NCBI GenBank assembly: GCA_024277915.1
Contig: JAJRUG010000020.1
Span: 1 to 42,573 of the forward strand
Source of the DNA: Gammaproteobacteria bacterium
Lineage (GTDB): Bacteria; Pseudomonadota; Gammaproteobacteria; Steroidobacterales; GCA-2729495
DNA length: 42,573 nucleotides
Direction of reading: 5' to 3'
The notes beneath the pieces are model-generated. The model was not told the origin of the DNA. It searched no databases and was given only the letters and a program-made list of their open reading frames with translations. Below, one piece after another: positions 6,851-23,890 of the stretch. Position numbers and translations under genes: made by a program. Within the stretch, counting starts at the first letter, position 1; every line of letters starts with the position of its first letter.

Positions 6851-7270
6851 GTCGCCATTCCTGTTTGTCCCGGATGAATCATTGAAGACTGCCTGCCGGC
6901 TCAAAGGTATCGTGACTTGATCTGATTGCTGTACGGAAACCCCTTATCGAGCCGGAATAGCAACGGAATAAAAAAGCGAAAAAAAACATGCGCAGTGCTG
7001 TGCCAACAAATTAGTTCTCTCCCCATTTACCATAAAGCATTTCCTGTCGATAACTTTTACAAAAGGCACCGATAAATTACTTTTTATCATTGCCAGATAC
7101 CATAATGCATACAAAAGTAGGCATTTATACCTGCATGAGTAGGCAACATTACTAGCATAAATAGCATACAAAACCGCGAGTTAGGAGTTGTTACGATGAG
7201 CACATTCAGGCTAAAATGGCACCAGCTCAGGAAAGGTTTATAATTTATTTTCAAAACTAAGGAGGCTGAC
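6851..7270. other. Intergenic region upstream of the cytochrome operon
   Basis: About 420 bases separate the divergently oriented barrel gene and the tetrahaem cytochrome gene. It is AT-rich and no convincing coding frame is visible. It holds the candidate promoter described separately near 7239 and an unusually good ribosome-binding site (AAGGAGG) before the cytochrome start. I found no tRNA-like or riboswitch-like structure by eye. A long untranslated leader or small RNA cannot be excluded. Confidence 0.6.
7239..7264 (+). promoter_or_regulatory. Candidate -10 element and strong ribosome-binding site of the cytochrome operon
   Basis: A perfect TATAAT lies at 7239-7244, 27 bases before the start codon. 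The sequence 17 bases upstream (ATGGCA) is a poor -35, so an activator may be needed. AAGGAGG (7258-7264), a near-perfect anti-Shine-Dalgarno match, lies six bases before the ATG, consistent with high-level translation of the first gene. Confidence 0.45.
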
Positions 7271-7963
7271 ATGGATATAAAAAATGATAGCGGCCGGGTA
7301 ATTTCTTTCATCAAAGTCGCTGCAGGAGTATTGGTGCTTGGATTGTTTTCCGGTCAGGCATCGGCCGGCACAATAGTCGGAACAGATCATGACTTTTCGA
7401 CTTCGGGGTTCAGCGGTGGTCAGTTATGTGTGGTATGCCATACCCCTCATAATGCAGATACATCGGTCAGTACCGCGCCGTTGTGGAATCATGAACAAAC
7501 GGTGGCGACATTCACGATGTACACCAGTCCATCAATGGATGCGGCACAGGATGCCCAACCAACCGGCACATCGAAACTTTGTTTGTCCTGCCATGACGGT
7601 ACGGTCGCCATTGACAGCTTTGGTGGCAATACCGGTACCAACTTCATGGGTGGCGGCGATGCCGTCGGTGCTGGTGGCGACCTGACGGACGACCATCCGA
7701 TTTCGATTAATTTCGATACTGCATTGTCGGTTACCGACCCCGGGCTGCATGATCCGAGCTCAACAACAGTCACGATCGGCGCTGGTGGTGACAAGACCAG
7801 AACCGGCTCAATCAGTCAGTTGTTGTTGTCCGCAGACAAGGTTCAATGCTCATCCTGCCATGACGTTCATAACAACTTCGTCGCAGCAGGTACTGGTGGA
7901 AATCCTTTCCTGAGGATTACCGCCAATGGCAGCGAAATTTGTCTGGCCTGCCATAACAAGTAA
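7271..7963 (+). CDS. Secreted tetrahaem c-type cytochrome, OmcE-like candidate filament subunit
   Basis: 230 aa. The signal peptide ends near GQASA, giving a mature protein of about 198 residues with exactly four CXXCH motifs: CVVCH (53), CLSCH (104), CSSCH (193) and CLACH (224). Motif surroundings (CVVCHTPHN, APLWN, CLSCHDGT, SCHDVHN) are those of the small doubled-CXXCH cytochrome family. The size and haem number equal those of Geobacter OmcE, a tetrahaem cytochrome that polymerises into extracellular filaments. It is the first gene of the locus, with a very strong ribosome-binding site and a hairpin just after the stop, as expected of an abundant structural subunit. The cytochrome assignment is certain; polymerisation is inference. 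The first half of the 12-haem protein at 12247 repeats this architecture. Confidence 0.88.
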   Translation: MDIKNDSGRVISFIKVAAGVLVLGLFSGQASAGTIVGTDHDFSTSGFSGGQLCVVCHTPHNADTSVSTAPLWNHEQTVATFTMYTSPSMDAAQDAQPTGTSKLCLSCHDGTVAIDSFGGNTGTNFMGGGDAVGAGGDLTDDHPISINFDTALSVTDPGLHDPSSTTVTIGAGGDKTRTGSISQLLLSADKVQCSSCHDVHNNFVAAGTGGNPFLRITANGSEICLACHNK

Positions 7964-7987
7964 CAATTGCTTCATGGCATTTGACGA

Positions 7988-8026
7988 CCACTGCCCATCG
8001 GTTCAATAACAACCGGTTGGCAGTGG
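7988..8026 (+). terminator. Imperfect hairpin between tetrahaem cytochrome and NHL gene, possible attenuator
   Basis: The arms at 7988-8003 and 8011-8026 pair at 14 of 16 positions (the CCACTGCC/GGCAGTGG and CGGTT/AACCG segments) around a 7-base loop. They begin 24 bases after the tetrahaem stop codon. Only TTTGT follows, so termination would be partial. It may stabilise the upstream mRNA or lower expression of the downstream genes relative to the first one. Confidence 0.55.
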
Positions 8027-8056
8027 TTTGTATCCTCGCGGCAGGGTATTGTTCCC

Positions 8057-9208
8057 GTGGTGCCCATAATGAAGCAGTCAACACAAAGCCATACTATCGC
8101 AGTAATCCCCCGGATCGTCGTGATCCTGGGGATTGTGGTGTTGTGGGGATGCGCAGGTGGTCCGGCACCCGCGCCTGATCAGGCTGCGCTTTTTTATCCT
8201 TCCCCCCCCGCCCAGCCACGGTTGCAGTTTCTGACCCGCCTGTCATCACAAAGGGATCTTGCAGCAGATCCCGGCGGTTTCATGGATTTCGTATTCGGCG
8301 AGGAAACTACCGAAGGACACCTCGTGCGCAAGCCATATGGTGTGACACTGTACGATGGCAGTGTATTCGTCGTGGATACGCGCAATTCCGGGTATGGTGT
8401 CTTCGATCTGCGCCAACGCAGCACCAGAATTGTACATGGCTACGGTGGCGGCGTGATGAAGAAACCGATCAATATCACCATCGAAGCAGATGGTACGCGA
8501 TATGTCACTGATACGGATCGGAAGCAAATTCTTGTTTTCGACAAGCAGGACAAGTTTCTCAGGGCATTGGGAAAGCCCGACCAGTTCAAACCGATAGATG
8601 TCGCGGTAGTCGGAGACCGGCTGTATGTCTCTGACCTTGATCATCATGAAATCCAGGTACTGGACAAGTATTCCGGCGAGGTGCTGTTCAGATTTGGCGA
8701 GGTAGGCTCAGAAACCGACCAGCTGTTTCAGCCGACCAATCTTGCAATCGGACCTGATGACAGTCTGTACATTAGTGACACCGGTAATTTCCGGGTACAA
8801 AAGTTTTCCCTAGATGGGAAATACCTGCAGACATTCGGGCAAATCGGAACTGCACTGGGTCGATTTGCCCGTCCTAAAGGGATCACGGTCGATCGTGACC
8901 AGCGCCTGTACATCATTGATGCCGCATTCGAGAACATCCAGATTCTGGATTCAGATGGCTCACCATTGCTGGTTTTTGCTCAACCGGGAGACAACAGGGG
9001 CAATATCAACATGCCCACAGCAATCAAAATCGACTATGACAACGTAGAATACTTCCAGCAATTCGCGGCACCCGGGTTCAAACTGGAGTATGTCATTCTC
9101 GTGGCCAGCCAGTTCGGTATCAACAAGGTTGTTGTATTCGGTTTTGGAGAACGGCAGGATATGGAGAACCCAGTTGAACGCCGCAATCTGGCACCGAACG
9201 GACAATAA
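8057..9208 (+). CDS. NHL-repeat six-bladed beta-propeller lipoprotein A
   Basis: 383 aa from a GTG at 8057, with AGGG ten bases upstream; an ATG at 8069 is an alternative. The hydrophobic segment ends in a lipobox (VVLWGC, Cys32) and the +2 residue is Ala, so by the Lol rule the protein should go to the outer membrane. Six NHL-type repeats follow, each of the form P..I.v...g.lYV.D....rIqvfd (for example PTNLAIGPDDSLYISDTGN). NHL propellers bind proteins or ligands rather than carry redox centres. It sits between the tetrahaem cytochrome and the beta-barrel gene and overlaps the latter, suggesting a role in assembly or secretion of an outer-membrane electron conduit or filament. Confidence 0.88.
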   Translation: MVPIMKQSTQSHTIAVIPRIVVILGIVVLWGCAGGPAPAPDQAALFYPSPPAQPRLQFLTRLSSQRDLAADPGGFMDFVFGEETTEGHLVRKPYGVTLYDGSVFVVDTRNSGYGVFDLRQRSTRIVHGYGGGVMKKPINITIEADGTRYVTDTDRKQILVFDKQDKFLRALGKPDQFKPIDVAVVGDRLYVSDLDHHEIQVLDKYSGEVLFRFGEVGSETDQLFQPTNLAIGPDDSLYISDTGNFRVQKFSLDGKYLQTFGQIGTALGRFARPKGITVDRDQRLYIIDAAFENIQILDSDGSPLLVFAQPGDNRGNINMPTAIKIDYDNVEYFQQFAAPGFKLEYVILVASQFGINKVVVFGFGERQDMENPVERRNLAPNGQ

Positions 9209-11207
9209 GGGCAGATTCCCTTCATCGATAGTCTGGATGGGGTTGTTGGCCATGATATCCACCACCACGATAGCCCAGCAGTACGAACAATATGAAATTG
9301 CACCATTCCGGTTAACGGATATCTCCGGGAAGATAGCAACCCGCTACCTTCTGGATGAGCAGATTCGCGGGCAAAGTGGTTCGGAAGATGTTTTCCAGAC
9401 TCGTCCAACTTTCGAGGAGGAGCTGTTTATACAAACCGAGAGCTACATCTACCACCCCGGCTTTCTCAATATGGACATCGGCGCGGGTGCGCTGCTTGTT
9501 CAGCAACAGTTCGATTCGAATGCCGGTGACAACAGCACCAATGAAGCTTTGTTTAATTTTCTGGTCAACCTGGATTTCCTCACATTGAAGGAGTACCCGG
9601 TTACACTTTACTACCAGCGCAGGCATCCTTCTGTTTCGACGAGTCTCGCAGGGCGATTCCTGGTGGAAGAGACCCGGTACGGACTGAACGCATCCTTGCG
9701 TGAACCTGTTTCGCCGGCTCTGCTGACCGTTGAAGCGTTTCGTATCAATACCAGGGGATCCGGATTTGATACATCAGTCGATGACATTGTCGATGAGGCG
9801 ACGTTCCGGGCCTCCAAGTCCTACGGTGACGGTGACAGAATCGCGCTGACCGAGCGCCTGAGTCGCCGGGACTCCAGTAGTGGCAGCCCCGATTTGCCGA
9901 TCCAGCAAACCATATCAACCACCAACACGACCGACATCGATGCACGGAACAGATTTGGCGAAGACCGGCAGTTTAATCTTGTGCAACAGCTGACTTTTTC
10001 TGACCAGAAAACCGAGCAGGATATTACTACCGATGTAAGCGACACCCGCTACTACGGGAATCTCATTTGGTCCCATTCGGAAAAAACACAATCGTTCTAC
10101 AGGTACCAAACGCAACGTAACCAGAGAAGCGGAATCGATGCCGTGACACAGCGCGCCGTAGTCGGCGCATCCCATATCAAGGGAATCAACCAGTCTGTAG
10201 ACGGAAATCTGTATTTCAGCACAGATAAAAACGAGGGTTTCAACAAGCAGGTGAACGGAGCTACCGGATCTATTACCCACACCAGGCAGTTTGGTTTTGG
10301 CTCCGTCCAGCTCGGAGCGGGTCTGTCATATGATCGCACTGATCAAAAGTCTACTGTCGATTTCGTCAGCGTATTTGACGAAATCATTACCCTTAATGGG
10401 TCCATGCCGGTAATTTTACGAAATAATTTTGTTATCTCCGGCAGCATCATTGTCAGAAATACCCCGAAAACCCAGGTATTTATCGAAGGCATGGACTATC
10501 GTCTGGTAACAACCGGAGATGCAACATCCATCGAGCGTCTGATCGGCGGCAGTATCATCGATGGACAGACAGTGCTTGTTGACTATCAATACCAGCCTGG
10601 TGGCACGATGAATTTCGACACTACCAGTCAAAGCTACTCCATAAACACGCGACTGTTTGACTATGTCAATCTGTACCTGCGGGTTCGCGATACGAATAAC
10701 CGGCTGCGTAGTGGAACACCGACTACTCCACTGAACTCCATTCGCAGCTACCAGGCGGGAATCCGGGTAGACTACCCGTTATCGAATGGATGGACGGTGG
10801 GCGGAGAGTATCTTTACACCAATCAGGATGAAGATATCGCGCCGTTCGTCCGTAACAGTTTTGATACCTATTTCCAGGTTGCGTTGCCCGGACTATCGGC
10901 ACTTCGGGTCTCGGCGCACAGGGAGACCGTTGATAACGCCGCATCACTTGAGGATGTTGATTTGGTCGAGTACCGGGCAAGATTCACCTCCCGGCCCTGG
11001 GGTCGCGCTACATTGTCTATTGATGCAGACTATCTGGAGGACACGGGTGGGAGCCTCAGGCGGCTTCGGCGTGGACAAAATCTTGCACTGGAATGGGGTT
11101 ATCGACAAATGCGGTTTGTCGTGCGAGCTCAGTACCTGATCGAGTCACAGGGGGTTGTGGACCGTGAGCAGACTATCGTGAAGGCAGAATTGAGCCGGAT
11201 ATTTTAA
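9174..11207 (+). CDS. Large outer-membrane beta-barrel protein of the cytochrome locus
   Basis: About 677 aa. The frame is open from an ATG at 9090, but I prefer TTG at 9174: GGAG lies 7 bases upstream and it gives a plausible signal peptide (basic HRTDNKGR, then a hydrophobic stretch ending TTTIAQQ). ATG 9237 would leave almost no n-region. The mature protein alternates polar and hydrophobic residues throughout, with many aromatic-flanked strands (VTLYYQRRHPS, FYRYQTQRN, GWTVGGEYLYTNQDE), and ends in Phe (AELSRIF), the beta-barrel assembly signal. Its length is near that of MtrB/PioB-type porins, but no CXXC motif is seen near its N-terminus. It abuts NHL lipoproteins on both sides, so it is the candidate outer-membrane channel. 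Confidence 0.8.
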   Translation: MNAAIWHRTDNKGRFPSSIVWMGLLAMISTTTIAQQYEQYEIAPFRLTDISGKIATRYLLDEQIRGQSGSEDVFQTRPTFEEELFIQTESYIYHPGFLNMDIGAGALLVQQQFDSNAGDNSTNEALFNFLVNLDFLTLKEYPVTLYYQRRHPSVSTSLAGRFLVEETRYGLNASLREPVSPALLTVEAFRINTRGSGFDTSVDDIVDEATFRASKSYGDGDRIALTERLSRRDSSSGSPDLPIQQTISTTNTTDIDARNRFGEDRQFNLVQQLTFSDQKTEQDITTDVSDTRYYGNLIWSHSEKTQSFYRYQTQRNQRSGIDAVTQRAVVGASHIKGINQSVDGNLYFSTDKNEGFNKQVNGATGSITHTRQFGFGSVQLGAGLSYDRTDQKSTVDFVSVFDEIITLNGSMPVILRNNFVISGSIIVRNTPKTQVFIEGMDYRLVTTGDATSIERLIGGSIIDGQTVLVDYQYQPGGTMNFDTTSQSYSINTRLFDYVNLYLRVRDTNNRLRSGTPTTPLNSIRSYQAGIRVDYPLSNGWTVGGEYLYTNQDEDIAPFVRNSFDTYFQVALPGLSALRVSAHRETVDNAASLEDVDLVEYRARFTSRPWGRATLSIDADYLEDTGGSLRRLRRGQNLALEWGYRQMRFVVRAQYLIESQGVVDREQTIVKAELSRIF

Positions 11208-12250
11208 TGATGTGCAAGAGTCGCTTGTTTCGTTTCTTCTTCCTGCTGCTGTTATTGACCGGCCTGCTCGCCTGCAACCCGACCTCCCGGCCGACCGTTG
11301 CAACAGAAGTCAGCCGCGCCTGGCCAGCCCCTCCTGCGGCGCCACGCTATGTATTCGTGACCGAGTTTTCAACCCCGGAGGATCTGGGGATCCAACCATC
11401 ATTCTGGAGCAGGCTGGTAGGTCTCGTCGCCGGGGCCAGTGAACAGCGAATGGTTCGGCCAATGGCAGTAGTCGCCGACGATGAAGGCCAACTGATCTTT
11501 GTTGCCGATCCGGGTGTTCAGGGAGTTCACCGGTTCGATCTTCGGCGGAGCAAGTATCGGCTGCTGCGCATCGATGACAACATGCCTGCGCCCTCTCCGG
11601 TAGGAATGGCGATTTCATCGACTGGCCAGGTATTCATCACGGATTCTCAACTGGGCAGGTTGCTTACAGTCAAGCCGGGGTCAGACCACCTGGAATTTCT
11701 TGGTACCGGAAAAGATTTGCTGCAACCGACCGGGATCGTATTCGATGACAACACCGGGAAAATCTTTGTGGTAGATACCGCCGATCACAACATCAAGGAA
11801 TTCGCGCTATCCGGTGTTCTTGTCAATCAGTTTTCTCGGCGCGGCAATGCGCCGGGAGAACTCAACTATCCCACCTATCTGTGGCAGGACATGCAGCATC
11901 GACTACTGGTCTCTGATTCACTCAATTTTCGCATTCAGTTTTTTGATGCGGACGGGCAACTCAGAGACGGTTTTGGCAAGGTCGGGGATGGCTCCGGCAG
12001 CCTTTCACGCCCGAAGGGCGTTGCCTCGGACAGTTTTGGGCATATTTACATCATCGATTCGATGTTCCATGCGCTGCAGGTATTCGACGAAACCGGCACA
12101 TTACTACTAAGCCTCGGTGAGCAGGGACAAGGAGCCGGAGAATTCTGGCTGCCGAACGGACTGTTCGTGGATGTGAACAATCTGATCTATATCGCTGACT
12201 CCCATAATCAACGGGTTCAGATTCTTCAGTATGTAGGTGTCACACCATGA
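11207..12250 (+). CDS. NHL-repeat six-bladed beta-propeller lipoprotein B
   Basis: 347 aa. The ATG overlaps the barrel stop codon by one base (TAATG), so translation is coupled. The N-terminus (RLFRFFFLLLLLTGLLAC) contains a lipobox with Cys23 and Asn at +2, predicting outer-membrane retention. Six NHL blades follow, from PMAVVADDEGQLIFVAD to PNGLFVDVNNLIYIADSHN. It is a paralogue of lipoprotein A: both share a segment before the propeller resembling PxxPRxxFxTxxSxxxDL, here PAAPRYVFVTEFSTPEDL. Having two related lipoproteins flank one barrel suggests they act as a pair. A binding or scaffolding role is inferred. Confidence 0.88.
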   Translation: MMCKSRLFRFFFLLLLLTGLLACNPTSRPTVATEVSRAWPAPPAAPRYVFVTEFSTPEDLGIQPSFWSRLVGLVAGASEQRMVRPMAVVADDEGQLIFVADPGVQGVHRFDLRRSKYRLLRIDDNMPAPSPVGMAISSTGQVFITDSQLGRLLTVKPGSDHLEFLGTGKDLLQPTGIVFDDNTGKIFVVDTADHNIKEFALSGVLVNQFSRRGNAPGELNYPTYLWQDMQHRLLVSDSLNFRIQFFDADGQLRDGFGKVGDGSGSLSRPKGVASDSFGHIYIIDSMFHALQVFDETGTLLLSLGEQGQGAGEFWLPNGLFVDVNNLIYIADSHNQRVQILQYVGVTP

Positions 12251-13941
12251 GGATTCGACTGAGTTGGCTGGTTGGTGTGGTGGCGCTGCTGGTCACCGTT
12301 GACCCATTGCTGGCGAGTGTGGCGGATACCCGCCACAATCTATCGGTCTCGGGGCCGGGTACCACGAAATCCGGTCTGGAAAGTCAGATTTGTATTTTTT
12401 GTCATACACCGCATAGCGCCTCTCCGGATGCGCCCCTGTGGAACCGGCGCCTCCCCGGCACCACTTATGTGCCATATAGCAGCAGCACCGCTGTTGCACA
12501 GCCAGGCCAGCCCACTGGTGCTTCCATCCTGTGCCTGAGTTGCCACGACGGCACCATCGCGCTGGGCGAAGTGTTAAGTCGAACAACGCCCATATCAATG
12601 ACAGGCGGTATCACCACAATGCCCGGTGGGTCGGCACTGATCGGCACCGATCTGTCCCACGATCACCCAGTGTCATTTGATTATTCCAGCAGTCTTGCAA
12701 GTCAGAACACAGAGCTTGCCGATCCTGCAACCCTGCAACCGGAAATCAGGCTGGATGACAACGGGCAGCTGCAATGCACAGCTTGTCACGATGCGCACAA
12801 CGATACCTACGGTAATTTTCTGGTCTGGCCAAACACTGGCTCCGCACTATGCAAGGCCTGCCATTTGAAGGAAGGCTGGCAAATATCGGCGCACAGTACA
12901 TCCGCAGCTACCTGGAACGGACAGTCACCCGATCCCTGGCCGCTGCGTGACCGGACGAACGTTGCAGATAATGCTTGTGAAAATTGCCATATGCCCCACC
13001 TGTCCACAGGTGGCCCCCGGCTGCTGATGTACGGTGATGAACAGCAGAACTGTTCTGCCTGTCACAACGGCAATGTGGCCACTGACGATGTGATGACAGT
13101 ATTCAACCAGTTGTCGGCTCATCCAATGACAGCAACTACACTGATTCATGACCCTGGAGAGCAAAGCATCGTATCCAGCCGGCATGTCGAATGTGCAGAC
13201 TGCCATAATCCGCATGCGGCCCGGGCAGCCACTGATCCTCTATCAGGCTCACTGGCGAATATCCGTGGCATCTCTATAGACGGCATAGAGACAGATCCTG
13301 TTTCCAGGGTTTATGAACTGTGCTTCCGTTGTCATGCAGACAGCCCGAATCAACCCATCCCCAGAACACCGCGCCAGTTACCACAGGTGAATACCCGGCT
13401 GGAATTTCAATTGGACAACCCGTCTTTTCATCCGGTCGCCGGACCGGGAAGAAACCCGACAGTACCAAGTCTTATCGCCCCATGGACGGTAAGCTCATCG
13501 ATGGGATGCGTGGATTGCCACAACAATAATGCAGCGAGCAGTGCAGCCGGTTCCGGCCCGGAGGGACCACATGGCTCGGCATTTTCACCCATCCTCGTGC
13601 AGCGCTACGAAACGCTGGACAACACACCGGAAAGCGCTTCCGCCTATGCACTGTGTTACAACTGCCATGATCGAAACAGCATTCTCAATGATGACAGTTT
13701 CAAAGAGCACAAAAAACATATCGACAAGGAAAATACACCCTGCAATGTTTGTCATGACCCTCACGGTGTCAGCAGCCAGCAGGGAAACAGCATCAACAAT
13801 TCCCACCTGATCAACTTTGATACCTCGGTGGTATTCGCCAACTCCAATGGCTTGCTTCGGTTTCGGGATAACGGGCAACTGGCCGGTTCCTGCGATCTGG
13901 AGTGTCATGGAGAGGATCACAGGGACGAATCCTATCCCTAG
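12247..13941 (+). CDS. Exported dodecahaem c-type cytochrome (11 CXXCH + 1 CX3CH)
   Basis: 564 aa with a signal peptide (cleavage near PLLA). The start overlaps the previous stop by four bases (ATGA). Eleven CXXCH motifs are present (CIFCH, CLSCH, CTACH, CKACH, CENCH, CSACH, CADCH, CFRCH, CVDCH, CYNCH, CNVCH), plus a C-terminal CDLECH, a CX3CH site that may also take haem. The first four, at residues 49, 96, 177 and 202, reproduce the spacing and flanks of the tetrahaem protein at 7271 (CHTPHS, APLWN, CLSCHDGT, CHDAHND). This is therefore an OmcE-like module fused to an eight-haem extension. Position after the barrel and NHL genes makes it a candidate conduit, terminal reductase or filament cap; these roles are inference. 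Confidence 0.9.
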   Translation: MRIRLSWLVGVVALLVTVDPLLASVADTRHNLSVSGPGTTKSGLESQICIFCHTPHSASPDAPLWNRRLPGTTYVPYSSSTAVAQPGQPTGASILCLSCHDGTIALGEVLSRTTPISMTGGITTMPGGSALIGTDLSHDHPVSFDYSSSLASQNTELADPATLQPEIRLDDNGQLQCTACHDAHNDTYGNFLVWPNTGSALCKACHLKEGWQISAHSTSAATWNGQSPDPWPLRDRTNVADNACENCHMPHLSTGGPRLLMYGDEQQNCSACHNGNVATDDVMTVFNQLSAHPMTATTLIHDPGEQSIVSSRHVECADCHNPHAARAATDPLSGSLANIRGISIDGIETDPVSRVYELCFRCHADSPNQPIPRTPRQLPQVNTRLEFQLDNPSFHPVAGPGRNPTVPSLIAPWTVSSSMGCVDCHNNNAASSAAGSGPEGPHGSAFSPILVQRYETLDNTPESASAYALCYNCHDRNSILNDDSFKEHKKHIDKENTPCNVCHDPHGVSSQQGNSINNSHLINFDTSVVFANSNGLLRFRDNGQLAGSCDLECHGEDHRDESYP

Positions 13942-13957: not shown

Positions 13958-14851
13958 GTGCTTAATTACATCTGGCAAGTATTGGCGCTCACGGCAATGG
14001 CATTCCCGAGCTGGACTGCAATGGCAGAGGATGGCCAGAATCCGCACTGGCGCACCGACGCTTGCGATACCTGCCATATAGAAAAATCACCAACCGCCGG
14101 GAATCCTTTGCTCAACGCTGCCCCGGATGATGCCCTCTGTCTGGACTGCCATGCTGCAACGAGTGAGTCAGCTTGCCGCCATCTGTCAACGATTCCGGCA
14201 GATCCTGACATGCAAAGACGTATGCCCGGGTCATTCCAGGCTTCACTGCGGGATGATCAGGTGGTGTGCGAAACCTGTCATGAGCTTCCTGCACAGTGTC
14301 TGGATGAGCGGCGAAATGAGCGTTTCACCAACCCGATGTTTTTAAGAGAGGGGCCATTTCACCAGCGCAGTGACCCTTGCTACCTGTGTCACGATAAGAA
14401 TGCCTACACAAAACTGAATCCACATGATCAATTTGCCGATAGTGGCGATTTGCGAGAGGCGATATGCCTGTTGTGCCACACGAGTGTTGACGCAACGGGC
14501 AAGATCACCGGGAATAATCTCTCTTTTAGTACTGGTGATGATCTTTCGGCCATGTGCACAGGCTGTCACCCCGTAGAACCTCACCCAGGGGCAACATTTT
14601 CATTTTCAGGAACCGACAGCTCCAACCACCTGGTCATTCCTTCTCCTGAAGTGCGCCGCCGGATGGATGAAACAGCAGCAAGCACCGGAATCAGGTTACC
14701 GGTTGATCCTTTATCAGGGAAAATATTCTGTGCAACCTGCCACGATCCGCATGATGATAATTTGCCCGATTATCCGGTTACCCCGGCCGATACACGTGAT
14801 ACAAACAGGCTGCGTCAAAAAAATATCTGTCTGGCATGCCATGACAAATAG
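13958..14851 (+). CDS. Exported octahaem c-type cytochrome
   Basis: 297 aa from a GTG at 13958, chosen because GGGGAGGG lies 9 bases upstream and a clean signal peptide follows (ending AFPSWTAMA). The frame is open back to 13817, inside the preceding gene. Eight CXXCH motifs are visible: CDTCH, CLDCH, CETCH, CYLCH, CLLCH, CTGCH, CATCH and a terminal CLACHDK. The last pair (CATCHDPHDDN, CLACHDK) is typical of doubled-CXXCH cytochromes. It starts 16 bases after the dodecahaem gene, ends this plus-strand operon, and converges with the giant cytochrome 39 bases downstream. It is probably a soluble periplasmic or secreted electron carrier. Confidence 0.87.
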   Translation: MLNYIWQVLALTAMAFPSWTAMAEDGQNPHWRTDACDTCHIEKSPTAGNPLLNAAPDDALCLDCHAATSESACRHLSTIPADPDMQRRMPGSFQASLRDDQVVCETCHELPAQCLDERRNERFTNPMFLREGPFHQRSDPCYLCHDKNAYTKLNPHDQFADSGDLREAICLLCHTSVDATGKITGNNLSFSTGDDLSAMCTGCHPVEPHPGATFSFSGTDSSNHLVIPSPEVRRRMDETAASTGIRLPVDPLSGKIFCATCHDPHDDNLPDYPVTPADTRDTNRLRQKNICLACHDK

Positions 14852-14890: not shown

Positions 14891-17800
14891 TCAGCGGCGA
14901 TTCCGGCGCTCTTCCTCTGAGTGGAAATACTGGTAGCGAAATATTGAATCCGCTCCGTGGCAATCAGCACACAGGAATGAAGCCGTACTGGACAGGCGCA
15001 GAAAGCTGGTGCTGATATCACCTTCGGTGTTCTTGCCTGGGGCAGGCTGAGTCAGGTCTGCCTGCCACTGGTGAGGATCATGACAGCTTGAGCAGCTGAT
15101 GACACCGGTCAGGGCCGCATGGCCTTCATTATCAAATACCGGTAGTGGCGCGACTGTGACCGGGTGCAGGTCTTCACGCAGTTTTTCTGACCAGGCTATG
15201 ACCTTGTCGGGGTGCAGCATATTTGGCGGGATCTTGGCTTGCGCAACCGCGTTGTCGACATGACAGCTCCGGCAGGTTTGCTCCACCGGGTTATCGCCAT
15301 CGCCCAGGGTCCTGGCCCACAGGCGCATTGGTGAAATGGCATTGTGTATGCTGTGGCAAGCACCACACAGGCCGGATGTCTGGACTGTCTGGGCATGGTC
15401 ATTCATGTCCTCGGGCCCGGTAATGGCAAGATCATGGTCGGTGCCAAGCACCTGTTGCTGATCGCGATGGCACTCACTACACAACTCACCCCGCATCGCA
15501 GACATGCGCAAGAAACTGTCACCGGCATCACCTTTGCTGTCGGGGGTCTGGCCGCTACGGCTCAACCGGTCATCCGCTTGCCATTGGTGGGGGTTATGGC
15601 GGCTGCCGCAGTCCACTGTACCGTCATGCATCGCCTGCTTGCCATCCGGCGTGTACAACGGCAGGTGTTCCGGGAGGTCGGCATTCGCCACCTTGACCTG
15701 AAGAGGGGGGCTGTAGCGACCAGGCTGTGTTTCTTCGGCATCACCCTTGTCACGGTGGCAGCTGGTGCAGCGCTTTTCACCAGCACTGAGCCCGGGACCC
15801 TCGTCTCTGGCCCACAAAAATGTACCCTTGGAATTATGCGGTTGATGACAGTTTTCACATACACCGGAGACAGCATTCCGGGGTGTCTCTTGATCCAGTA
15901 ACAAATGCTCGCCTCCATGCATGGATAAAGACACCACGGCCTGGTCGGTATGGCAATTGATGCACAGATCACTGTTGCCCTGCTCGCTGATGCGCAGGAA
16001 GCTATTGCCTGAATCGCCTTCAACATCGAGTGCAACCACCTCGGTATCCGGCGACCATCGATGCGGATCATGGCAACTGCCGCAACTGACCTGCCCATCC
16101 TGCCCGGCTCGCTGGCCATGCTGGTTGAAGAGGGGGAGTGGCAGTAGCGGGTCAGCTCCGGGCAGTGATGCAAGGCTATTGCTCCATTCATCCAGGCTGG
16201 TGCGAATACCAAGATCGGTGATCGGAACATCCAGGGGATGGCTGTGATCGCCGACCAGTTTCTTTGCGGCAACCCCATCCGGATTGTGGCAACTGAGACA
16301 GGGAGTTGCTGCAGTACTTGTCTGACCCGGTAGTACCCGGCCCCACATGCTTAACCCGGTACTGTTGTGTACCTGGTGGCAGCTACCGCACAGTCCGGAC
16401 TGCGCGGCTGTTTGATCGAGCGCATTACGTGCCTCAGGCGCCACTTTAGCCAGATCATGTTCGGTTCCCTGTATCAACCACTTTTCCTCGTGACAGGCCC
16501 GGCACAGTTCCGAATCCGGGCCATCGGCTATACGCAGGAAACTGTTACTGGCATCGCTGCTGTCACCGGGTTTGCCTGCATGGCCCGGCCGTGCCGGATC
16601 CCACTGGTGAGGATCGTGGCAACTTGCACAGGTGACCAGGCCAGTGTTGCTGTTAACCAGCTTCAGGCCATCACTGCTGAAGGTGGGCAACTCCACCGGT
16701 TGTCCGAGCCGTCCGACATCAACACCCACCGGGTGGCTATAGCGTCCGACCAGGTGCTCCTCAGCCAGACCACCCTCGTCATGGCAGCTCAGGCATAGTG
16801 CCGCCATGGCATCCTGGCTTGCCCCCGGCTCGCGAGCCCACATCTTCGGGCCTTTGCCCTGATGCGGCAGGTGACAGGCACTACAGACATCACCTTCAGC
16901 TTCCGCAACCAGCTGCATATCGTGTTTACCGCCGGCAATCCGGCGCTGTTTCTCGTGACAGTCTCCACAAAGCGATGATTGCTTGTTGTCGGCGACCAGC
17001 AGACTGGACGATGGACGCGCTTCGTGGAGTTTGTGGCAGGTCTCACAGATCACTTCACCATCGGGACCCGACCTGGCGCCCTGTTCTTCCAGTGATGGCG
17101 GAATCCTGGCCTGCTCGGGGATTATATTTACAGGGTGAGTGTGCAGACGTGCTGCAGCGGCCATGGAATCAGCGGCGTGATCCTCGTGACAACTGCCACA
17201 TAACTGGGATCGGTCATTTGCTGTGACCAGCAGTTTTTCTTCCCGGGCGGCATGTGCACTGTGGCAACTCTGGCAGGTGATTTTTTCTTCATTACTCAAT
17301 TTTGCACCCGTCGTATCAAACAAGGCAGGGCGTCCTTCCAGCGCCTCATTGAGCGGGTGGTAACCCGCAGCGGGGCCTTTTGTTTTCTCATCATGGCAGG
17401 CCTGACACAGCTCGCCGTCGCGGCTGCGTACTCGCATGAAAACCGGTGAATCGGTGGCTCCCCATTCGACACCATGGGCAGTGTGGCAGGTACCGCAGTA
17501 TATTTTACCGTCATCGTTGAGCGGGAAAAGGTTCTTGCCCTCCACGATCGGGATATGGATTTCCTCGGACGGTTCTTGCCCGACCGGGTGAGCATGTTCC
17601 TTGTTTTTCCACAGATCACGTGATTCCAGCACCCAACCGTCGTGACATGACAGGCACATGCGCTCGGTACTGGAGACATCCTGCCTGCCGGATTCAACCA
17701 GCGGCCTGGGATCGTAGGAGACCAGGGGTGTCACATCATCACGTTTGAATTCATTCAGCCACATAATATGACAAAGTGCACATTCGCGTTTCGCTGACGG

Positions 17801-17899
17801 CAGTCGCGGTGCGGCAGTTACATGATCTGCAATCAACAGAAAAAGAATCAGCGGTGTCAGTAACCGCACCAGACAGGGAAAAACCTGTCTGGTCATCAA
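14891..17899 (-). CDS. Giant exported multihaem cytochrome, 23 intact CXXCH of 24 ordered sites
   Basis: 1002 aa. The signal peptide is about residues 1-29 (LLTPLILFLLIADHVTA), and there is no C-terminal anchor. Twenty-three CXXCH motifs occur. From residue about 339 the protein consists of four tandem blocks of roughly 160 residues (starting near 339, 504, 681 and 845), each with four motifs in the order CH.PHN..g..mWaR, CLSCH, CxSCHDPHQW...NSFLRI, LCxxCH...gtEHDL. The first eight motifs form two less regular groups, so the plan is 6 x 4. In the third block the expected CXXCH is CGSRH (Arg767; TGC to CGC, base 15601). It is the last gene of the minus-strand operon, overlapping the NHL gene by four bases. 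It is likely a long periplasmic or extracellular wire. Confidence 0.9.
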   Translation of the reverse strand: MMTRQVFPCLVRLLTPLILFLLIADHVTAAPRLPSAKRECALCHIMWLNEFKRDDVTPLVSYDPRPLVESGRQDVSSTERMCLSCHDGWVLESRDLWKNKEHAHPVGQEPSEEIHIPIVEGKNLFPLNDDGKIYCGTCHTAHGVEWGATDSPVFMRVRSRDGELCQACHDEKTKGPAAGYHPLNEALEGRPALFDTTGAKLSNEEKITCQSCHSAHAAREEKLLVTANDRSQLCGSCHEDHAADSMAAAARLHTHPVNIIPEQARIPPSLEEQGARSGPDGEVICETCHKLHEARPSSSLLVADNKQSSLCGDCHEKQRRIAGGKHDMQLVAEAEGDVCSACHLPHQGKGPKMWAREPGASQDAMAALCLSCHDEGGLAEEHLVGRYSHPVGVDVGRLGQPVELPTFSSDGLKLVNSNTGLVTCASCHDPHQWDPARPGHAGKPGDSSDASNSFLRIADGPDSELCRACHEEKWLIQGTEHDLAKVAPEARNALDQTAAQSGLCGSCHQVHNSTGLSMWGRVLPGQTSTAATPCLSCHNPDGVAAKKLVGDHSHPLDVPITDLGIRTSLDEWSNSLASLPGADPLLPLPLFNQHGQRAGQDGQVSCGSCHDPHRWSPDTEVVALDVEGDSGNSFLRISEQGNSDLCINCHTDQAVVSLSMHGGEHLLLDQETPRNAVSGVCENCHQPHNSKGTFLWARDEGPGLSAGEKRCTSCHRDKGDAEETQPGRYSPPLQVKVANADLPEHLPLYTPDGKQAMHDGTVDCGSRHNPHQWQADDRLSRSGQTPDSKGDAGDSFLRMSAMRGELCSECHRDQQQVLGTDHDLAITGPEDMNDHAQTVQTSGLCGACHSIHNAISPMRLWARTLGDGDNPVEQTCRSCHVDNAVAQAKIPPNMLHPDKVIAWSEKLREDLHPVTVAPLPVFDNEGHAALTGVISCSSCHDPHQWQADLTQPAPGKNTEGDISTSFLRLSSTASFLCADCHGADSIFRYQYFHSEEERRNRR

Positions 17900-18831
17900 G
17901 GTGATATCTCGAATACTGAAACCTGGTTTTTCAGCATTTCAACGACATACAGTCGATCCTGTGTATCCAGTGCAATACCGGTCGGTGTGTCAAAGCGCCA
18001 GGGCATGCCGTCTTCACTACCGAGTACATAAAGAAACTCACCTGAATCCGCGAATACCTGTATCAGGTTCATATAACTGTCCGAAACGTAGAAACGACCT
18101 GCACTGTCAACGGCCACTCCCTTGGGACGGAAAAATTGTCCCGGCAAAACACCCCAGTCGCCAACCACCAGAGACAAATCTCCGCCTGGATTAAAAACCT
18201 GAACCCGTGTATTTAATACATCGACTACGGCAAGGCGGCCATCCGCCAGCAGTGTTGCACTGGCAGGATAGCGGAATTGACCGCGGTTGGAGCCGTTGCT
18301 GCCCCATTCGCGTAACAGATTTCCCTGACGGGAAAATACCATGACTTTATGATTCCTGTTGCCGGTAATATACAGTTCCTTGCCGTTGTGATTAACCGTG
18401 ATATCAATGGGTCGTGCCGGTTTGCCGCCATCATGCATGACGATACTACTGATAAAATTCCCCGTCTGGCTGAAAATCTGAATTCGGTGATTTCCGGTGT
18501 CGGCTACGTAGATTTCTCCATTGCCAGCGGTAATGCCAACCGGGCTACTGAACTGCCCCTCAGCTTCGCCCGGCCCGCCGATCTGAAATCGGTACCTGCC
18601 ATTGTGATCGAAGACAACGACGCGGTGGTTACCACCGTCGACCACGTAGATATACCGTGCATCGACGGCCACATCGCTGGGCAGTGCCAACAGATCACTG
18701 GTCTGGCCACCGAGTTCCATCAGCGGTTGAATGGCGCGAGTCGGAATAGAATCTGCCTTGCCGGGGCAGGAAATCAACAGGAAAAGAAAAATGAAAAAAC
18801 TCTTGGCGACCAGCTTACGGCTCAGGCACAT
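17896..18831 (-). CDS. NHL-repeat six-bladed beta-propeller lipoprotein C
   Basis: About 311 aa. Three consecutive ATGs occur at 18837, 18834 and 18831; the third has GGAG at proper spacing. It gives a hydrophobic lead ending in a lipobox (FLFLLISC, Cys22, Pro at +2). Six canonical NHL blades follow, such as PVGITAGNGEIYVADTGNHRIQIF and PKGVAVDSAGRFYVSDSY. It overlaps the end of the trihaem gene upstream and the start of the giant cytochrome downstream, so it is co-translated with both. It is closer to the textbook NHL consensus than lipoproteins A and B. It may position or secrete the giant cytochrome. Confidence 0.87.
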   Translation of the reverse strand: MCLSRKLVAKSFFIFLFLLISCPGKADSIPTRAIQPLMELGGQTSDLLALPSDVAVDARYIYVVDGGNHRVVVFDHNGRYRFQIGGPGEAEGQFSSPVGITAGNGEIYVADTGNHRIQIFSQTGNFISSIVMHDGGKPARPIDITVNHNGKELYITGNRNHKVMVFSRQGNLLREWGSNGSNRGQFRYPASATLLADGRLAVVDVLNTRVQVFNPGGDLSLVVGDWGVLPGQFFRPKGVAVDSAGRFYVSDSYMNLIQVFADSGEFLYVLGSEDGMPWRFDTPTGIALDTQDRLYVVEMLKNQVSVFEISP

Positions 18832-19900
18832 CATCATCTCCGCTCGGTGGGGGGGAGGATTTGCGCCACCAGGCGCGTGGCTTTGCAGCTTCTTCATCGC
18901 TGGTTGGCATCTCCTGATCCTCACCGATCAGCGTCTTGCTATCGGGTAATGACAGGCCACTCTCGAAGAGTCTGGGAAGATAGAATTCCCGGTATTTGTC
19001 GACGATACCAACCAGATTGAGATTAGTGACGTCGTCGATTCGCTGATCGGAGAATCCGAGCTCACGAAACGGCAGGTAACTTTTGTCTTCTGCGATATGG
19101 CAACGCGAGCAGAAGCGACCCTTGGGGCTGACCATCGCATGAAAGCGTTTTTTCAATGCATCCTTGTCCTGATCGGAAAGCTGTTCGCGAATGGCCAGAA
19201 ACTCTTGCACATCGGATGATTGTTCAGTAATTTCCAGCAGCTCATTTTCACCGCTGCTGGTGTCATAAACCACAATCTTCGAATAGTAGTCATCGGTATC
19301 GACCAGAAACCCGGTGTCGGGGTTGGTACTGGTGCCGAAATGCGGCCCCTGTACCTCGATCCCCGAATAGTTCAGCCACGCAAATTGATAGTTTTCTTCC
19401 GGTGCTTTGCGCGGGTCCGTATGACAGGTCATGCAACCGATAAACTGGGTATGCATATTGAGCAGTGTGCGCACCATGCGCTGCTTGGAATGGGAATAGT
19501 CACCGTGGCAGTAGAAGCAGACTGATTTCTTGCCGAGGTTGACCAGATCCTGTTCGGGTTCGTTATGAAAATGCCGCATACGTTCCGTAAAACGCTGTTC
19601 ACTCAGTTCCTGTAACAGCTTCGGCTGTTCGGCACTACGCGGCAACCCAAGAAACCCGGTCAATGCGACAGTCAGCTCGAATAGCAATACCAGAATGATC
19701 GAACCGAGAATCAGCGTGGTCAGGAAGCTGATGACAGGGTGTCCTGTCCGTAGTCCGCTGATGCTGAACGGATCATTGCGGAAGGCACCGGGAATTTTAG
19801 CCTTGTGGTCAATGATGACCAGCATGGCGATGCCGAGCAGCACAAACAGCACTACTGTGAGGACAATAAAGATAACCAATTGAGGACTGACCTGACCCAT
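18815..19900 (-). CDS. Membrane-anchored trihaem c-type cytochrome (module 1)
   Basis: 361 aa. Two N-terminal membrane helices (about residues 8-30 and 57-82) precede a periplasmic domain with three CXXCH motifs: CFYCH, CMTCH and CSRCH. Conserved stretches around them (LLNMHTQFIGCMTCH, VGIVDKYREFYLP) reappear in the plus-strand paralogue at 24703 (FMNMHAFYLACETCH, VGMIEKYKEFYIP). The C-terminal tail is acidic and proline-rich (PPPSGDDDVPEP). It follows the 38-aa membrane protein by four bases and overlaps the NHL gene. Next to a cytochrome b it probably accepts electrons from the quinol-oxidising subunit. It is not a NapC/NrfH protein: it has too few haems and different spacing. Confidence 0.85.
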   Translation of the reverse strand: MGQVSPQLVIFIVLTVVLFVLLGIAMLVIIDHKAKIPGAFRNDPFSISGLRTGHPVISFLTTLILGSIILVLLFELTVALTGFLGLPRSAEQPKLLQELSEQRFTERMRHFHNEPEQDLVNLGKKSVCFYCHGDYSHSKQRMVRTLLNMHTQFIGCMTCHTDPRKAPEENYQFAWLNYSGIEVQGPHFGTSTNPDTGFLVDTDDYYSKIVVYDTSSGENELLEITEQSSDVQEFLAIREQLSDQDKDALKKRFHAMVSPKGRFCSRCHIAEDKSYLPFRELGFSDQRIDDVTNLNLVGIVDKYREFYLPRLFESGLSLPDSKTLIGEDQEMPTSDEEAAKPRAWWRKSSPPPSGDDDVPEP

Positions 19901-19904
19901 TACC

Positions 19905-20021
19905 CTAGTACTCGGTGAGTATCAACCAGATTGCAAAAAGACCAAGCAGTGTCGCGCAGAACACAAAGAACAGCGAGCTGTAAGCAATAATTTTTTGCAA
20001 TGCTGTCAGAGGTTTCATCAT
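19905..20021 (-). CDS. 38-aa single-helix membrane protein (module 1)
   Basis: A 38-residue peptide, MMKPLTALQKIIAY followed by one hydrophobic helix and a short LTEY tail. Its ATG at 20021 overlaps the cytochrome b stop codon (ATGA) and its stop lies four bases before the trihaem gene, so it is embedded in the operon. The size and topology are those of small stabilising subunits of respiratory complexes. The divergent operon has a similar-sized peptide at 22588. Function unknown. Confidence 0.65.
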   Translation of the reverse strand: MMKPLTALQKIIAYSSLFFVFCATLLGLFAIWLILTEY

Positions 20022-20944
20022 GAGGAAGTACTCTCGGCCATATCCTCGCCCGGTTTCCAGTTCGCCAGGAGATCCAGAAGATAGGCCCGTTCCCCGGGGA
20101 ACTCTACCAGGTTGCGCAGGTACTCCAGAAAATGTTCCTCGATCTGGTGCTCGCGGGTAATTTTTCCGGTCAGGAACGTCCATTGCATCGGGAAACGCCC
20201 CGGTGCGAGGTGAACGTTGTACCAATGCCAGAAAGCGATCACCAACAAAGCCAGCAGCGCTTCGTGTGGATGTGACAGACGCATCATCTCCTGGAAATTT
20301 GAAACAATACCAATCGGCAGCACAGCAGCCCAGAACTCCGGAAACAGGAAAGATGAGCCGGAGATAATCATTACCAGGTTGCCGAAAGCAGCGGCAAAGT
20401 AATGGATCTTCTGCTTGTACATGAACTTGTCCATTTCCGGTCGCTGATCATGCTTGCCTGCAAAATACAGCATGTCCTGTTTGAAGTCGCGGATATCCTT
20501 GAAAGTAGGAATGATGGTGCGCTGCAGTTCGAAACGCCCCCGCATTATCTGCTGGAGTGGTCCGAGCGTGATAGTGACCATGTGATACAACATCCCGAAA
20601 ATCATGACACTGGCGAGGGTACGGTGCATGATTCTGGATACGTCAACCCCACCGATCAGGGAATTAAGAGGCTCCGCCCAGAAATGATCAAAAAAAGCGA
20701 TCGGCAAGCCGGTGAAAGCCAGTGCCAGAAAGCTTACAAAGATCATCATATGCTGAATACGGGTATGAATAGAGTAACGCGGCAGATCGCCGATCGGGTT
20801 GGAGACAACATTTTTATACAGCAACACCTTGTCATCCGGCATTGCGGCGATCACCTTTTCGATCTCGCTGCGTTGCTGATCATCGACACGATGGATGCGC
20901 ATCGAAGTTTCAAGAACATCCCGGGCCTCTGCTGAAAGGTTCAT
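20018..20944 (-). CDS. Di-haem cytochrome b (FdnI/HydC-like), module 1
   Basis: 308 aa. A soluble N-terminal segment of about 50 residues is followed by four hydrophobic segments. Conserved histidines sit where the b-haem ligands lie in the formate dehydrogenase gamma/NiFe-hydrogenase cytochrome b family: RIQH (His65), IMHR (His107), HPHEALLAL and FWHWYNVH. The paralogue at 23891 keeps the same four sites (RVQH, LIHR, MHTDEALLAV, FVHWYNVH). It should oxidise or reduce quinol and exchange electrons with the flanking c-type cytochromes. It lies 26 bases after the octahaem gene and overlaps the small membrane protein. The extra N-terminal domain is absent from the paralogue. Confidence 0.85.
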   Translation of the reverse strand: MNLSAEARDVLETSMRIHRVDDQQRSEIEKVIAAMPDDKVLLYKNVVSNPIGDLPRYSIHTRIQHMMIFVSFLALAFTGLPIAFFDHFWAEPLNSLIGGVDVSRIMHRTLASVMIFGMLYHMVTITLGPLQQIMRGRFELQRTIIPTFKDIRDFKQDMLYFAGKHDQRPEMDKFMYKQKIHYFAAAFGNLVMIISGSSFLFPEFWAAVLPIGIVSNFQEMMRLSHPHEALLALLVIAFWHWYNVHLAPGRFPMQWTFLTGKITREHQIEEHFLEYLRNLVEFPGERAYLLDLLANWKPGEDMAESTSS

Positions 20945-20970
20945 GATTTTTGTTTCCTGTTAGTGTTCAA

Positions 20971-22101
20971 TCACGACTCACGATCGCGTCCGCGTCGTGA
21001 ACGTCGCCACCAGGATGAACCGTTGCGGATACGCCATCCGACTCCGTCTCGCCGGCGACCGACAGTTTCGAATAATGCCAGACCGACCAGTGCTGCAATC
21101 ACAATGTAAGCCACCCAGTTGTATACAATCTCGGCATAATAGATGAATGGCCCCTCTTCGCGATCACTGGTCGGATGGGGGTCGAGTGCCGCATAGTTTT
21201 CATTGGCATAGGTATGGCAGCGTTTGCAGGTTTCGACTTTGCGCCCGGGGCTGACCGGCGACAACGGATCACGTGAAGGGCGTATGAAGTGGGCGCTGAG
21301 GTAATAGTTGTCCTGGTCAACATGGCAATCCAGGCAGTTGGGCGTGTTCTGGAATCCATAGCGTGTCACTTTACCGTGAAAGCTGTTGTTATAGGATTCC
21401 ACTGCCAGGCGGTATTTTTTTCCCAGCTCACGTCCTTCAGCAGCAGCCACCTTCAAATGACGTTCCACCAGGCGCTCGTCCCCGTGACACGATGAGCATA
21501 GCGCCACAATTTCCTCCGGAGTGCGCTTGACCTCGCGAATACGCCGGCTGGTATGTTTATACCAGTTTTCAACAAACTTGTTGTCTTCATGACAGATAAC
21601 ACAGCGGTCTACAATCTCTTTTGGCGGCTGTCCTTCATCGGGGTTATAGATCGGGTTACGGTGGCAGGTCACACAGTAAGGTTTGTCTATATCTGGTCCT
21701 TCAGCCTGTTTCTCCCGGCCGTGAGTACTGCGCTGATATTCCTCAGCGATCAACCGGTGACTGAAATTTTTCCCTGTTGCAGGGTTCTTGATAGAGTGAC
21801 ATTCAGAGTCACAGGTTACGCCGGTTTCAACATCACGGTGCGGGAGTTGCTTGATGTAGGTATGACAATCTGTGCAGGGTACGTTGCGGTGTACGGTGGA
21901 GCCGAAGATATGCGGCATGACATAGTAAGATCGTTTGGCGCCTTCTTCTGTGATCCGACCCATCTTCGGGTACTTGTGACACAACAGGCACCCTTCATCA
22001 TCTTCGAAGGCTGCCAGAGAACCAGCAGACCAGAGAATCCCGCAGAAGGCAATTAACAATAGCCATCCTGTTTGCCGAATATTTACAACGCCATGATTCA
22101 T
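20971..22101 (-). CDS. Octahaem c-type cytochrome with C-terminal membrane anchor (module 1)
   Basis: 376 aa from the ATG at 22101, which gives a normal signal peptide (about 30 residues); an ATG at 22155 would add an unusual extension. It has seven CXXCH motifs (CLLCH, CTDCH, CVTCH, CVICH, CSSCH, CLDCH, CKRCH) and one CX3CH, CDSECH, as the third site. A single membrane helix (about residues 325-347) is followed by a very basic Arg/Trp-rich cytoplasmic tail. The paralogue at 22836 has the same order and topology and also a CX3CH at site three. It is the first gene of the minus-strand operon and probably the electron-accepting subunit on the periplasmic face of the cytochrome b. Confidence 0.87.
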   Translation of the reverse strand: MNHGVVNIRQTGWLLLIAFCGILWSAGSLAAFEDDEGCLLCHKYPKMGRITEEGAKRSYYVMPHIFGSTVHRNVPCTDCHTYIKQLPHRDVETGVTCDSECHSIKNPATGKNFSHRLIAEEYQRSTHGREKQAEGPDIDKPYCVTCHRNPIYNPDEGQPPKEIVDRCVICHEDNKFVENWYKHTSRRIREVKRTPEEIVALCSSCHGDERLVERHLKVAAAEGRELGKKYRLAVESYNNSFHGKVTRYGFQNTPNCLDCHVDQDNYYLSAHFIRPSRDPLSPVSPGRKVETCKRCHTYANENYAALDPHPTSDREEGPFIYYAEIVYNWVAYIVIAALVGLALFETVGRRRDGVGWRIRNGSSWWRRSRRGRDRES

Positions 22102-22136
22102 GGGTTTCTTTTGGTTGTATTTCAGAACCTGACAAT

Positions 22137-22142
22137 AGTATA
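22137..22142 (-). promoter_or_regulatory. Candidate -10 element of the minus-strand cytochrome operon
   Basis: On the minus strand TATACT (5 of 6 to consensus) lies about 36 bases upstream of the octahaem start codon. No convincing -35 is visible at 16-18 bases, which would fit an activator-dependent promoter. An FNR-like palindrome lies upstream, at 22170-22183, centred near -46 relative to a start site predicted from this element. Confidence 0.35.
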
Positions 22143-22169
22143 GGGTAAAATGCAAGTGCAGTGCCCCTA

Positions 22170-22183
22170 TTGACCTGTGTCAT
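22170..22183. promoter_or_regulatory. FNR/DNR-like palindrome between divergent operons
   Basis: TTGACCTGTGTCAT fits the TTGAY-N4-RTCAA layout of FNR/DNR boxes with one mismatch in the last base. It lies in the 97-base gap between the divergent cytochrome operons, where one site could serve both. Anaerobic or redox control would suit the locus. The spacing to the predicted -10 is not the canonical -41.5, so this is only a candidate. Confidence 0.35.
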
Positions 22184-22198
22184 TTCCGGCGAGAAATC

Positions 22199-22426: not shown

Positions 22427-22520
22427 TAATCAACGCCTGTTTATGCGCACTGTCCACTGTGTGCACCCCCTGCTTGCCCGGCGCACTGTTTGAGTCTAAT
22501 ATAGTATTGGTTGCAGCTTA

Positions 22521-22534
22521 TTGTGTACAATCAA
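22521..22534. promoter_or_regulatory. Second FNR-like site upstream of module 2
   Basis: TTGTGTACAATCAA matches the FNR consensus TTGAT-N4-ATCAA at 8 of 10 specified bases. It is 53 bases upstream of the 37-aa gene and overlaps a weak promoter-like pair (TTGTGT, 17 bases, TATACC at 22544-22549). Together with the site at 22170 it suggests common redox control. It is a candidate only. Confidence 0.3.
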
Positions 22535-22587
22535 TAAGTTGCATATACCTGCATGTTGCCGATTGTGAAAATCAAGGAGGTACAGGC

Positions 22588-22701: not shown

Positions 22702-22747
22702 TCTGCGGGTGTGGCCGTCTTCGTTTGAATACGTTATATACTGCCTG

Positions 22748-23888: not shown

Positions 23889-23890
23889 TC

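What the first reader, a model, noticed from the sequence alone, without database searches (positions are those of the whole stretch)
7271..7963. Tetrahaem protein with features of an OmcE-type nanowire subunit
Exactly four CXXCH motifs, about 198 mature residues, first gene of the operon, near-perfect ribosome-binding site and a post-stop hairpin. Geobacter OmcE is a tetrahaem cytochrome that forms extracellular filaments, with similar size and doubled-CXXCH motif style. A gammaproteobacterial version with its own export locus would be notable.
Basis: partly seen in the sequence, partly recalled or inferred. Interest (0 to 1): 0.85.

Follow-up and report, generated by a model that had tools for sequence, protein, structure and literature searches.

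The report
OmcE-family nanowire subunit in Uet-like operon
This gene encodes a four-haem protein of the same family as Geobacter's OmcE "protein nanowire", and in these marine gammaproteobacteria it comes with the parts of an outer-membrane electron conduit, including a second, larger cytochrome that carries the same nanowire-type domain at its head; a filament is likely but has not been shown.

Summary
In detail: 230 codons at 7271-7963, four CXXCH, a signal peptide leaving 198 residues, AAGGAGG before the ATG, and a strong post-stop hairpin. The protein is a full-length homologue of the OmcE filament subunit 7TFS (E=1e-24; profile 3e-34). All eight presumptive haem-ligand histidines are conserved.

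The gene heads a conserved operon: tetrahaem, NHL propeller, ~650-aa presumed beta-barrel, NHL lipoprotein, 11-12-haem cytochrome, octahaem cytochrome, often a cytochrome-b/multihaem quinone module. This resembles the published Uet electron-uptake cluster of Tenderiales and Gallionella, without its isomerase and trihaem genes. In both cluster types the tetrahaem protein and the N-terminal ~200 residues of the 11-12-haem protein are OmcE homologues; these heads form one supported clade. The hairpin recurs in 20 of 22 loci with unrelated sequences, against 1 of 144 other gene ends, suggesting that the first gene is made in excess.

Best reading: a secreted subunit of an OmcE-type filament, joined to a Uet-like conduit through the OmcE-headed cytochrome. 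Family membership is near certain; filament formation about 0.7; the adaptor role is inference. AlphaFold models were unusable, so inter-subunit ligation was not tested.

The parts
7259..7265 (+). Shine-Dalgarno AAGGAGG of the tetrahaem gene
   Evidence: sequence
7271..7963 (+). Tetrahaem c-type cytochrome of the OmcE family (UetA-like), 230 aa; CXXCH histidines 57, 108, 197, 228; further invariant histidines 40, 60, 142, 200
7986..8028 (+). Stem-loop just after the stop codon of the first gene; present at this place in 20 of 22 related loci with unrelated sequences
8057..9208 (+). NHL beta-propeller 1, probable lipoprotein (LWGC); start may be ATG 8069
9237..11207 (+). Presumed outer-membrane beta-barrel (UetC-like position); about 656 aa, ends in an invariant Phe; start uncertain (ORF opens at 9090)
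   Evidence: no Pfam or PDB match
11207..12250 (+). NHL beta-propeller 2, lipoprotein (LLAC)
12247..13941 (+). Cytochrome with 11 CXXCH plus one longer motif (UetJ-like); residues 24-208 (12316-12870) are an OmcE-homologous head with all eight histidines
13958..14851 (+). Octahaem secreted cytochrome, last gene of the conserved block; start uncertain
14891..17899 (-). Very large multihaem cytochrome, 23 CXXCH, often near this locus in relatives
17896..18924 (-). NHL beta-propeller 3
18815..22155 (-). Presumed inner-membrane quinone module: trihaem protein, cytochrome b561-type protein, 7-8-haem protein; follows the octahaem gene directly in many relatives
22836..25599 (+). Second, paralogous quinone module: 6-8-haem protein, cytochrome b561-like protein (just under the Pfam cut-off), trihaem protein

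Best explanation
The 7271-7963 product is a secreted tetrahaem cytochrome of the OmcE family and most likely the repeating subunit of an extracellular cytochrome filament. Shown: homology to OmcE over its whole length, four haem sites, and the same eight invariant histidines. Shown: a conserved operon that pairs it with a presumed outer-membrane barrel, NHL propeller lipoproteins and an 11-12-haem cytochrome whose head is itself an OmcE-type domain. Inferred: the hairpin after the first gene keeps that part of the message longer lived, so that the subunit is made in excess of the conduit, as a polymer needs. Inferred: the subunits stack head to tail as in OmcE, one haem per subunit taking a histidine from its neighbour. 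Inferred: the OmcE-headed cytochrome is the end piece that lets the first subunit dock, passing electrons between filament and barrel conduit. The octahaem cytochrome and the cytochrome-b modules then link to the quinone pool. Direction of flow is open; RuBisCO and haem-copper oxidases in the genome fit electron uptake, as proposed for Uet.
For: Full-length hits to OmcE 7tfs and to 9yuq 'putative multiheme cytochrome c' (16 chains) by sequence and profile; no other PDB family comes near. Eight histidines conserved in 39-40 of 40 OmcE-type sequences including OmcE and in nearly all of 80. OmcE head on the 11-12-haem protein: 45% identity; 7tfs 4e-42; profile-profile E 1.6e-44. Conserved gene order in about 20 gammaproteobacterial loci. 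Same two-part scheme in Uet-type clusters with PPIase and trihaem genes and across other classes of the phylum. Heads of the large cytochromes form one clade, 96/91. Hairpin after the first gene. In OmcE haem 2 is ligated from the neighbouring subunit (PMC12203936; PMC9473688). RuBisCO and oxidases.
Against: No direct evidence of a filament. Both AlphaFold models failed, so inter-subunit ligation was not tested. The conserved histidines would be needed for four bis-His haems in a monomer too. The OmcE head on a protein that is presumably not a polymer shows that the domain can work without forming a long filament. Two loci lack a clear hairpin right after the first gene, as do the two Uet-type loci L063 and L065. 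The barrel has no recognised family.
Confidence: 0.68

Rival explanations
1. It is an OmcE-family protein that does not polymerise: a soluble or surface-bound extracellular tetrahaem cytochrome that docks singly on the OmcE-headed cytochrome and passes electrons to or from a mineral, electrode or partner.
For: The OmcE domain also exists as a head on a large cytochrome, so the fold alone does not mean a polymer. In the Gallionellaceae paper UetA is described only as an extracellular tetrahaem cytochrome (PMC10734462).
Against: The closest solved homologue, OmcE, is a filament, and the second one, 9yuq, was deposited as 16 chains. The conserved hairpin points to high relative output of the first gene.
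Confidence: 0.2
2. It is a periplasmic electron carrier between the quinone modules and the outer-membrane conduit.
For: Sec signal without lipid anchor; genes for quinone-linked modules lie next to the operon.
Against: Its nearest homologues are extracellular; periplasmic carriers are covered by the trihaem or octahaem genes of the clusters. The sequence is Gly/Ser/Thr-rich with long loops like OmcE, not like cytochromes c7 or c3.
Confidence: 0.08
3. It is a structural insert of the barrel (the wire inside the porin), not an extracellular protein.
For: Always within one or a few genes of the barrel.
Against: Four haems are too few to cross the membrane compared with MtrA's ten (general knowledge); the 8- and 11-12-haem proteins of the operon are better candidates; the separate expression signal is unexplained.
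Confidence: 0.04

Closest known systems
OmcE of Geobacter sulfurreducens (PDB 7TFS)
   Same: Full-length sequence homology, four CXXCH, same eight invariant histidines, similar mature length, signal peptide and no lipid anchor
   Different: Different phylum and different operon; filament formation and inter-subunit ligation not shown here; the gammaproteobacterial clade has WNH where OmcE has WNR
Uet cluster of 'Ca. Tenderia electrophaga' and Gallionella (uetABCDEFGHIJ; PMC10734462, PMC12575090)
   Same: Tetrahaem protein first, barrel, NHL proteins, 11-12-haem protein last; the tetrahaem protein and the head of the 11-12-haem protein are OmcE homologues in Uet-type clusters as well
   Different: The window lacks the PPIase (UetB), the three trihaem proteins (UetDEG) and UetF; it has an octahaem protein, an additional NHL protein between tetrahaem and barrel, and quinone modules alongside
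PDB 9YUQ 'putative multiheme cytochrome c'
   Same: Full-length homologue with the same four haem motifs, E=1.2e-19
   Different: Organism and assembly not described in any paper held
MtrCAB / PCC porin-cytochrome conduits
   Same: Barrel plus multihaem cytochromes plus inner-membrane quinol module
   Different: No MtrA, MtrB or MtrC homologue found among the core genes by Pfam, NCBIfam or PDB profile; the core here is OmcE-type

Membership tests
OmcE family (sequence) | Homology to OmcE over the full length | tested here: met
   phmmer E=1.2e-24 over residues 15-230; profile 3.4e-34
OmcE family (sequence) | Four CXXCH haem sites | tested here: met
OmcE family (sequence) | Four further histidines available as distal ligands at the OmcE positions | tested here: met
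   H40, H60, H142, H200 invariant with OmcE, 9yuq and the large-cytochrome head
OmcE family (sequence) | Secreted by Sec, no lipid anchor | tested here: met
   Signal peptide with ASA cut read from the sequence; no signal-peptide program was available
OmcE-type nanowire | Haem ligated by a histidine of the neighbouring subunit | tested here: inconclusive
OmcE-type nanowire | Polymerises into extracellular filaments | not testable with these tools
   needs cryo-EM of sheared filaments
Uet electron-uptake cluster | Tetrahaem (UetA), barrel (UetC), NHL (UetHI), undecahaem (UetJ) | tested here: met
   matched to the gene list in PMC10734462 and to Uet-like loci L063-L065 and L074
Uet electron-uptake cluster | PPIase (UetB) and three trihaem cytochromes (UetDEG) | tested here: not met
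   absent between 7271 and 14851; an octahaem protein stands in their place
Uet electron-uptake cluster | Works in extracellular electron uptake | not testable with these tools
   RuBisCO and oxidases in the genome are compatible

The most novel reading that the evidence does not exclude
Cytochrome nanowires of the OmcE family are built as a two-protein set across Pseudomonadota: a tetrahaem repeating subunit and a dedicated end piece that carries the same domain at its head, through which the filament is plugged into an outer-membrane conduit. The Uet electron-uptake pathway would then be a nanowire pathway.
Probability: 0.4. Interest if true: 0.78.

Novelty: new variant of a known kind. Interest (0 to 1): 0.57.

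Why it matters
How cytochrome filaments connect to the cell is described as poorly understood (PMC10553843). Here one operon holds a subunit of the OmcE family, a presumed outer-membrane barrel and a large cytochrome with an OmcE-type head, and this set recurs in many genomes. That gives a concrete candidate for the missing link between filament and conduit. It also places the Uet pathway, proposed for cathode-feeding and iron-oxidising bacteria, in the nanowire family, which makes a testable prediction: those organisms should bear OmcE-like filaments.

Tried and rejected
AlphaFold of the tetrahaem protein (25 sequences, pLDDT 42.5) and of the 11-12-haem protein (14 sequences, pLDDT 30.6): both unusable, so no fold search was made and ligand geometry was not read. 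Barrel: no Pfam or PDB relative even by profile. Post-stop hairpin as intrinsic terminator: rejected, no T-run. Plasmid collection: no relatives of either protein, so no route there to an annotated Geobacter-type record. Literature on OmcE and Uet primary papers (10.1038/s41564-022-01159-z, 10.1016/j.cell.2023.05.012, PMC9599434) is not held, so whether their authors noted the UetA-OmcE link could not be checked. Bacteroidota homologue L061: isolated gene without the operon, possibly misbinned or transferred; not pursued.

Full report
What is there. The ORF at 7271-7963 (+) has 230 codons and four CXXCH motifs. It follows a textbook ribosome-binding site (AAGGAGG, five bases before the ATG) and opens with a signal peptide that ends ASA|G, which leaves 198 residues. 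A stable stem-loop lies at 7986-8028, 22 bases after the stop codon. All points of the observation are confirmed.

Family. Against the solved structures the protein has two good matches: OmcE, the filament subunit of Geobacter sulfurreducens (7tfs, E=1.2e-24, residues 15-230), and 9yuq, a 'putative multiheme cytochrome c' with 16 chains (E=1.2e-19). A profile of 25 relatives gives 3.4e-34 and 3.6e-27; the next family is OmcS at 3.4e-5 over a short stretch. Beyond the four CXXCH histidines exactly four more, H40, H60, H142 and H200, are invariant in relatives, in OmcE, in 9yuq and in the paralogous head described below (nearly all of 80 sequences). Two other histidines, H74 and H160, are not shared with OmcE. 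That is the number needed for four bis-histidine haems. In OmcE one of these ligands comes from the next subunit, at haem 2 (PMC12203936; PMC9473688). Conservation is compatible with the same arrangement here but does not prove it, since a monomer would need the same residues.

Context. Among contigs of gammaproteobacterial assemblies and unnamed relatives, the gene heads the same block almost every time: tetrahaem protein; NHL propeller; a ~650-residue protein ending in an invariant Phe, presumably an outer-membrane barrel, though without a Pfam or PDB relative; a second NHL lipoprotein; a cytochrome with 11 CXXCH plus one longer motif; an octahaem cytochrome. Often there follows a module of 7-8-haem protein, cytochrome b561-type protein and trihaem protein, which I take to be a quinone-linked inner-membrane complex (inference). 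In the window two such modules and a 23-haem cytochrome lie downstream in varied orientation. Within its own family the gene is patchy: only two of the 36 other genomes of the family that were searched have it, which suggests transfer or loss.

The OmcE-headed cytochrome. Residues 24-208 of the 11-12-haem protein (12247-13941) are an OmcE-type domain: 45% identical to the tetrahaem protein, profile match to 7tfs at 4.2e-42, profile-profile E 1.6e-44 with 38% identity, all eight histidines kept. The remaining ~350 residues carry seven or eight more haem sites.

Relation to Uet. PMC10734462 lists the Uet cluster of Tenderiales and Gallionella as extracellular tetrahaem UetA, isomerase UetB, barrel UetC, trihaem UetDEG, NHL UetHI and undecahaem UetJ. 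Loci L063-L065 and L074, found here by similarity, have just this content and order: 271-304-residue tetrahaem protein, barrel-sized protein, three trihaem genes, two NHL genes and an 11-haem protein of 880-906 residues in L063-L065; a PpiC/SurA-type isomerase confirmed by Pfam in L064 and L074. In L064 the tetrahaem protein and the head of the 11-haem protein both match OmcE best (7.4e-24 and 6.9e-21). L069, L070 and L072 are intermediate forms. The common core is therefore OmcE-type tetrahaem protein, barrel, NHL protein and OmcE-headed 11-12-haem protein; the periplasmic cytochromes vary. In other classes of the phylum the same pair, a ~280-330-residue tetrahaem protein and a ~800-900-residue headed protein, usually lies about 9-10 kb apart on one contig. 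A maximum-likelihood tree puts the heads of large cytochromes from both kinds of cluster in one clade (96/91; one short partial row, cut by a contig end, falls inside) apart from the small proteins. Subunit and headed partner thus separated before the cluster types did. Deep branches of the tree are weak, and OmcE and 9yuq are long branches whose joining may be an artefact.

The hairpin. The stem-loop after the first gene is positionally conserved while its sequence is not: 20 of 22 loci fold at z < -2.5 in the 85 bases after the stop, median -3.8. Only 1 of 144 ends of other genes in the same clusters does so, with medians near zero (at least one duplicate locus among the 22, and some control ends counted twice). 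With no T-run it is more likely a 3' stabiliser or processing site than a terminator. This is what one expects when the first gene of an operon has to be made in excess. It is evidence for high relative dosage, not for polymerisation as such. Uet-type loci are mixed: present in L064 and L069, absent in L063 and L065.

Mechanism. Most likely the protein is exported through the Sec system, loaded with four haems in the periplasm, moved to the surface and added to a filament of the OmcE kind. The OmcE-headed cytochrome offers the same interface at the cell end and leads electrons through the barrel to the periplasmic octahaem protein and the cytochrome-b modules. Homology, gene order, histidine set, the headed partner and the hairpin are shown. 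Filament, surface location, docking and direction of current are inferred. The genome encodes a RuBisCO (fragment at a contig end) and three haem-copper oxidases, which fits an aerobic autotroph taking electrons up, as proposed for Tenderia, but reduction of an outside acceptor is not excluded.

Limits. AlphaFold failed for both proteins. The primary papers on OmcE, on the wide spread of cytochrome filaments and on Uet were not held, so novelty of the UetA-OmcE link is judged only from the papers that could be searched: the main Uet paper held does not mention OmcE. No Geobacter genome could be reached to see whether OmcE has a headed partner there.

Noticed in passing
14891-17899 (-): 1002-residue cytochrome with 23 CXXCH; a further site reads CGSRH (second Cys replaced by Arg) where neighbouring repeats have CGSCH, so a 24th haem site seems lost or misread.
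   Followed up: no
18815-25599: Two paralogous modules of cytochrome b561-type protein with flanking multihaem proteins, pointing in opposite directions; relatives carry one or the other or both.
   Followed up: partly
L043:17701-18444, L045:13217-13915, L056:583-1266: A second, about 50% identical tetrahaem OmcE-type gene after the octahaem gene in some relatives, perhaps a second subunit type.
   Followed up: no
L061:10021-10677: A lone OmcE-type gene (five CXXCH) on a contig labelled Cyclobacteriaceae, without the conduit genes; transfer or misbinning.
   Followed up: partly
5774-6904 (-): His/Met-rich predicted outer-membrane protein divergent from the operon, possibly metal-related.
   Followed up: no
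28253-30601 (-): 782-residue secreted protein with one CXXCH; looks like a fatty acid cis/trans isomerase (from memory, not tested).
   Followed up: no
4676-5047 (+): Ala/Lys/Glu-rich low-complexity protein of 123 residues, coiled-coil-like, upstream of the operon.
   Followed up: no
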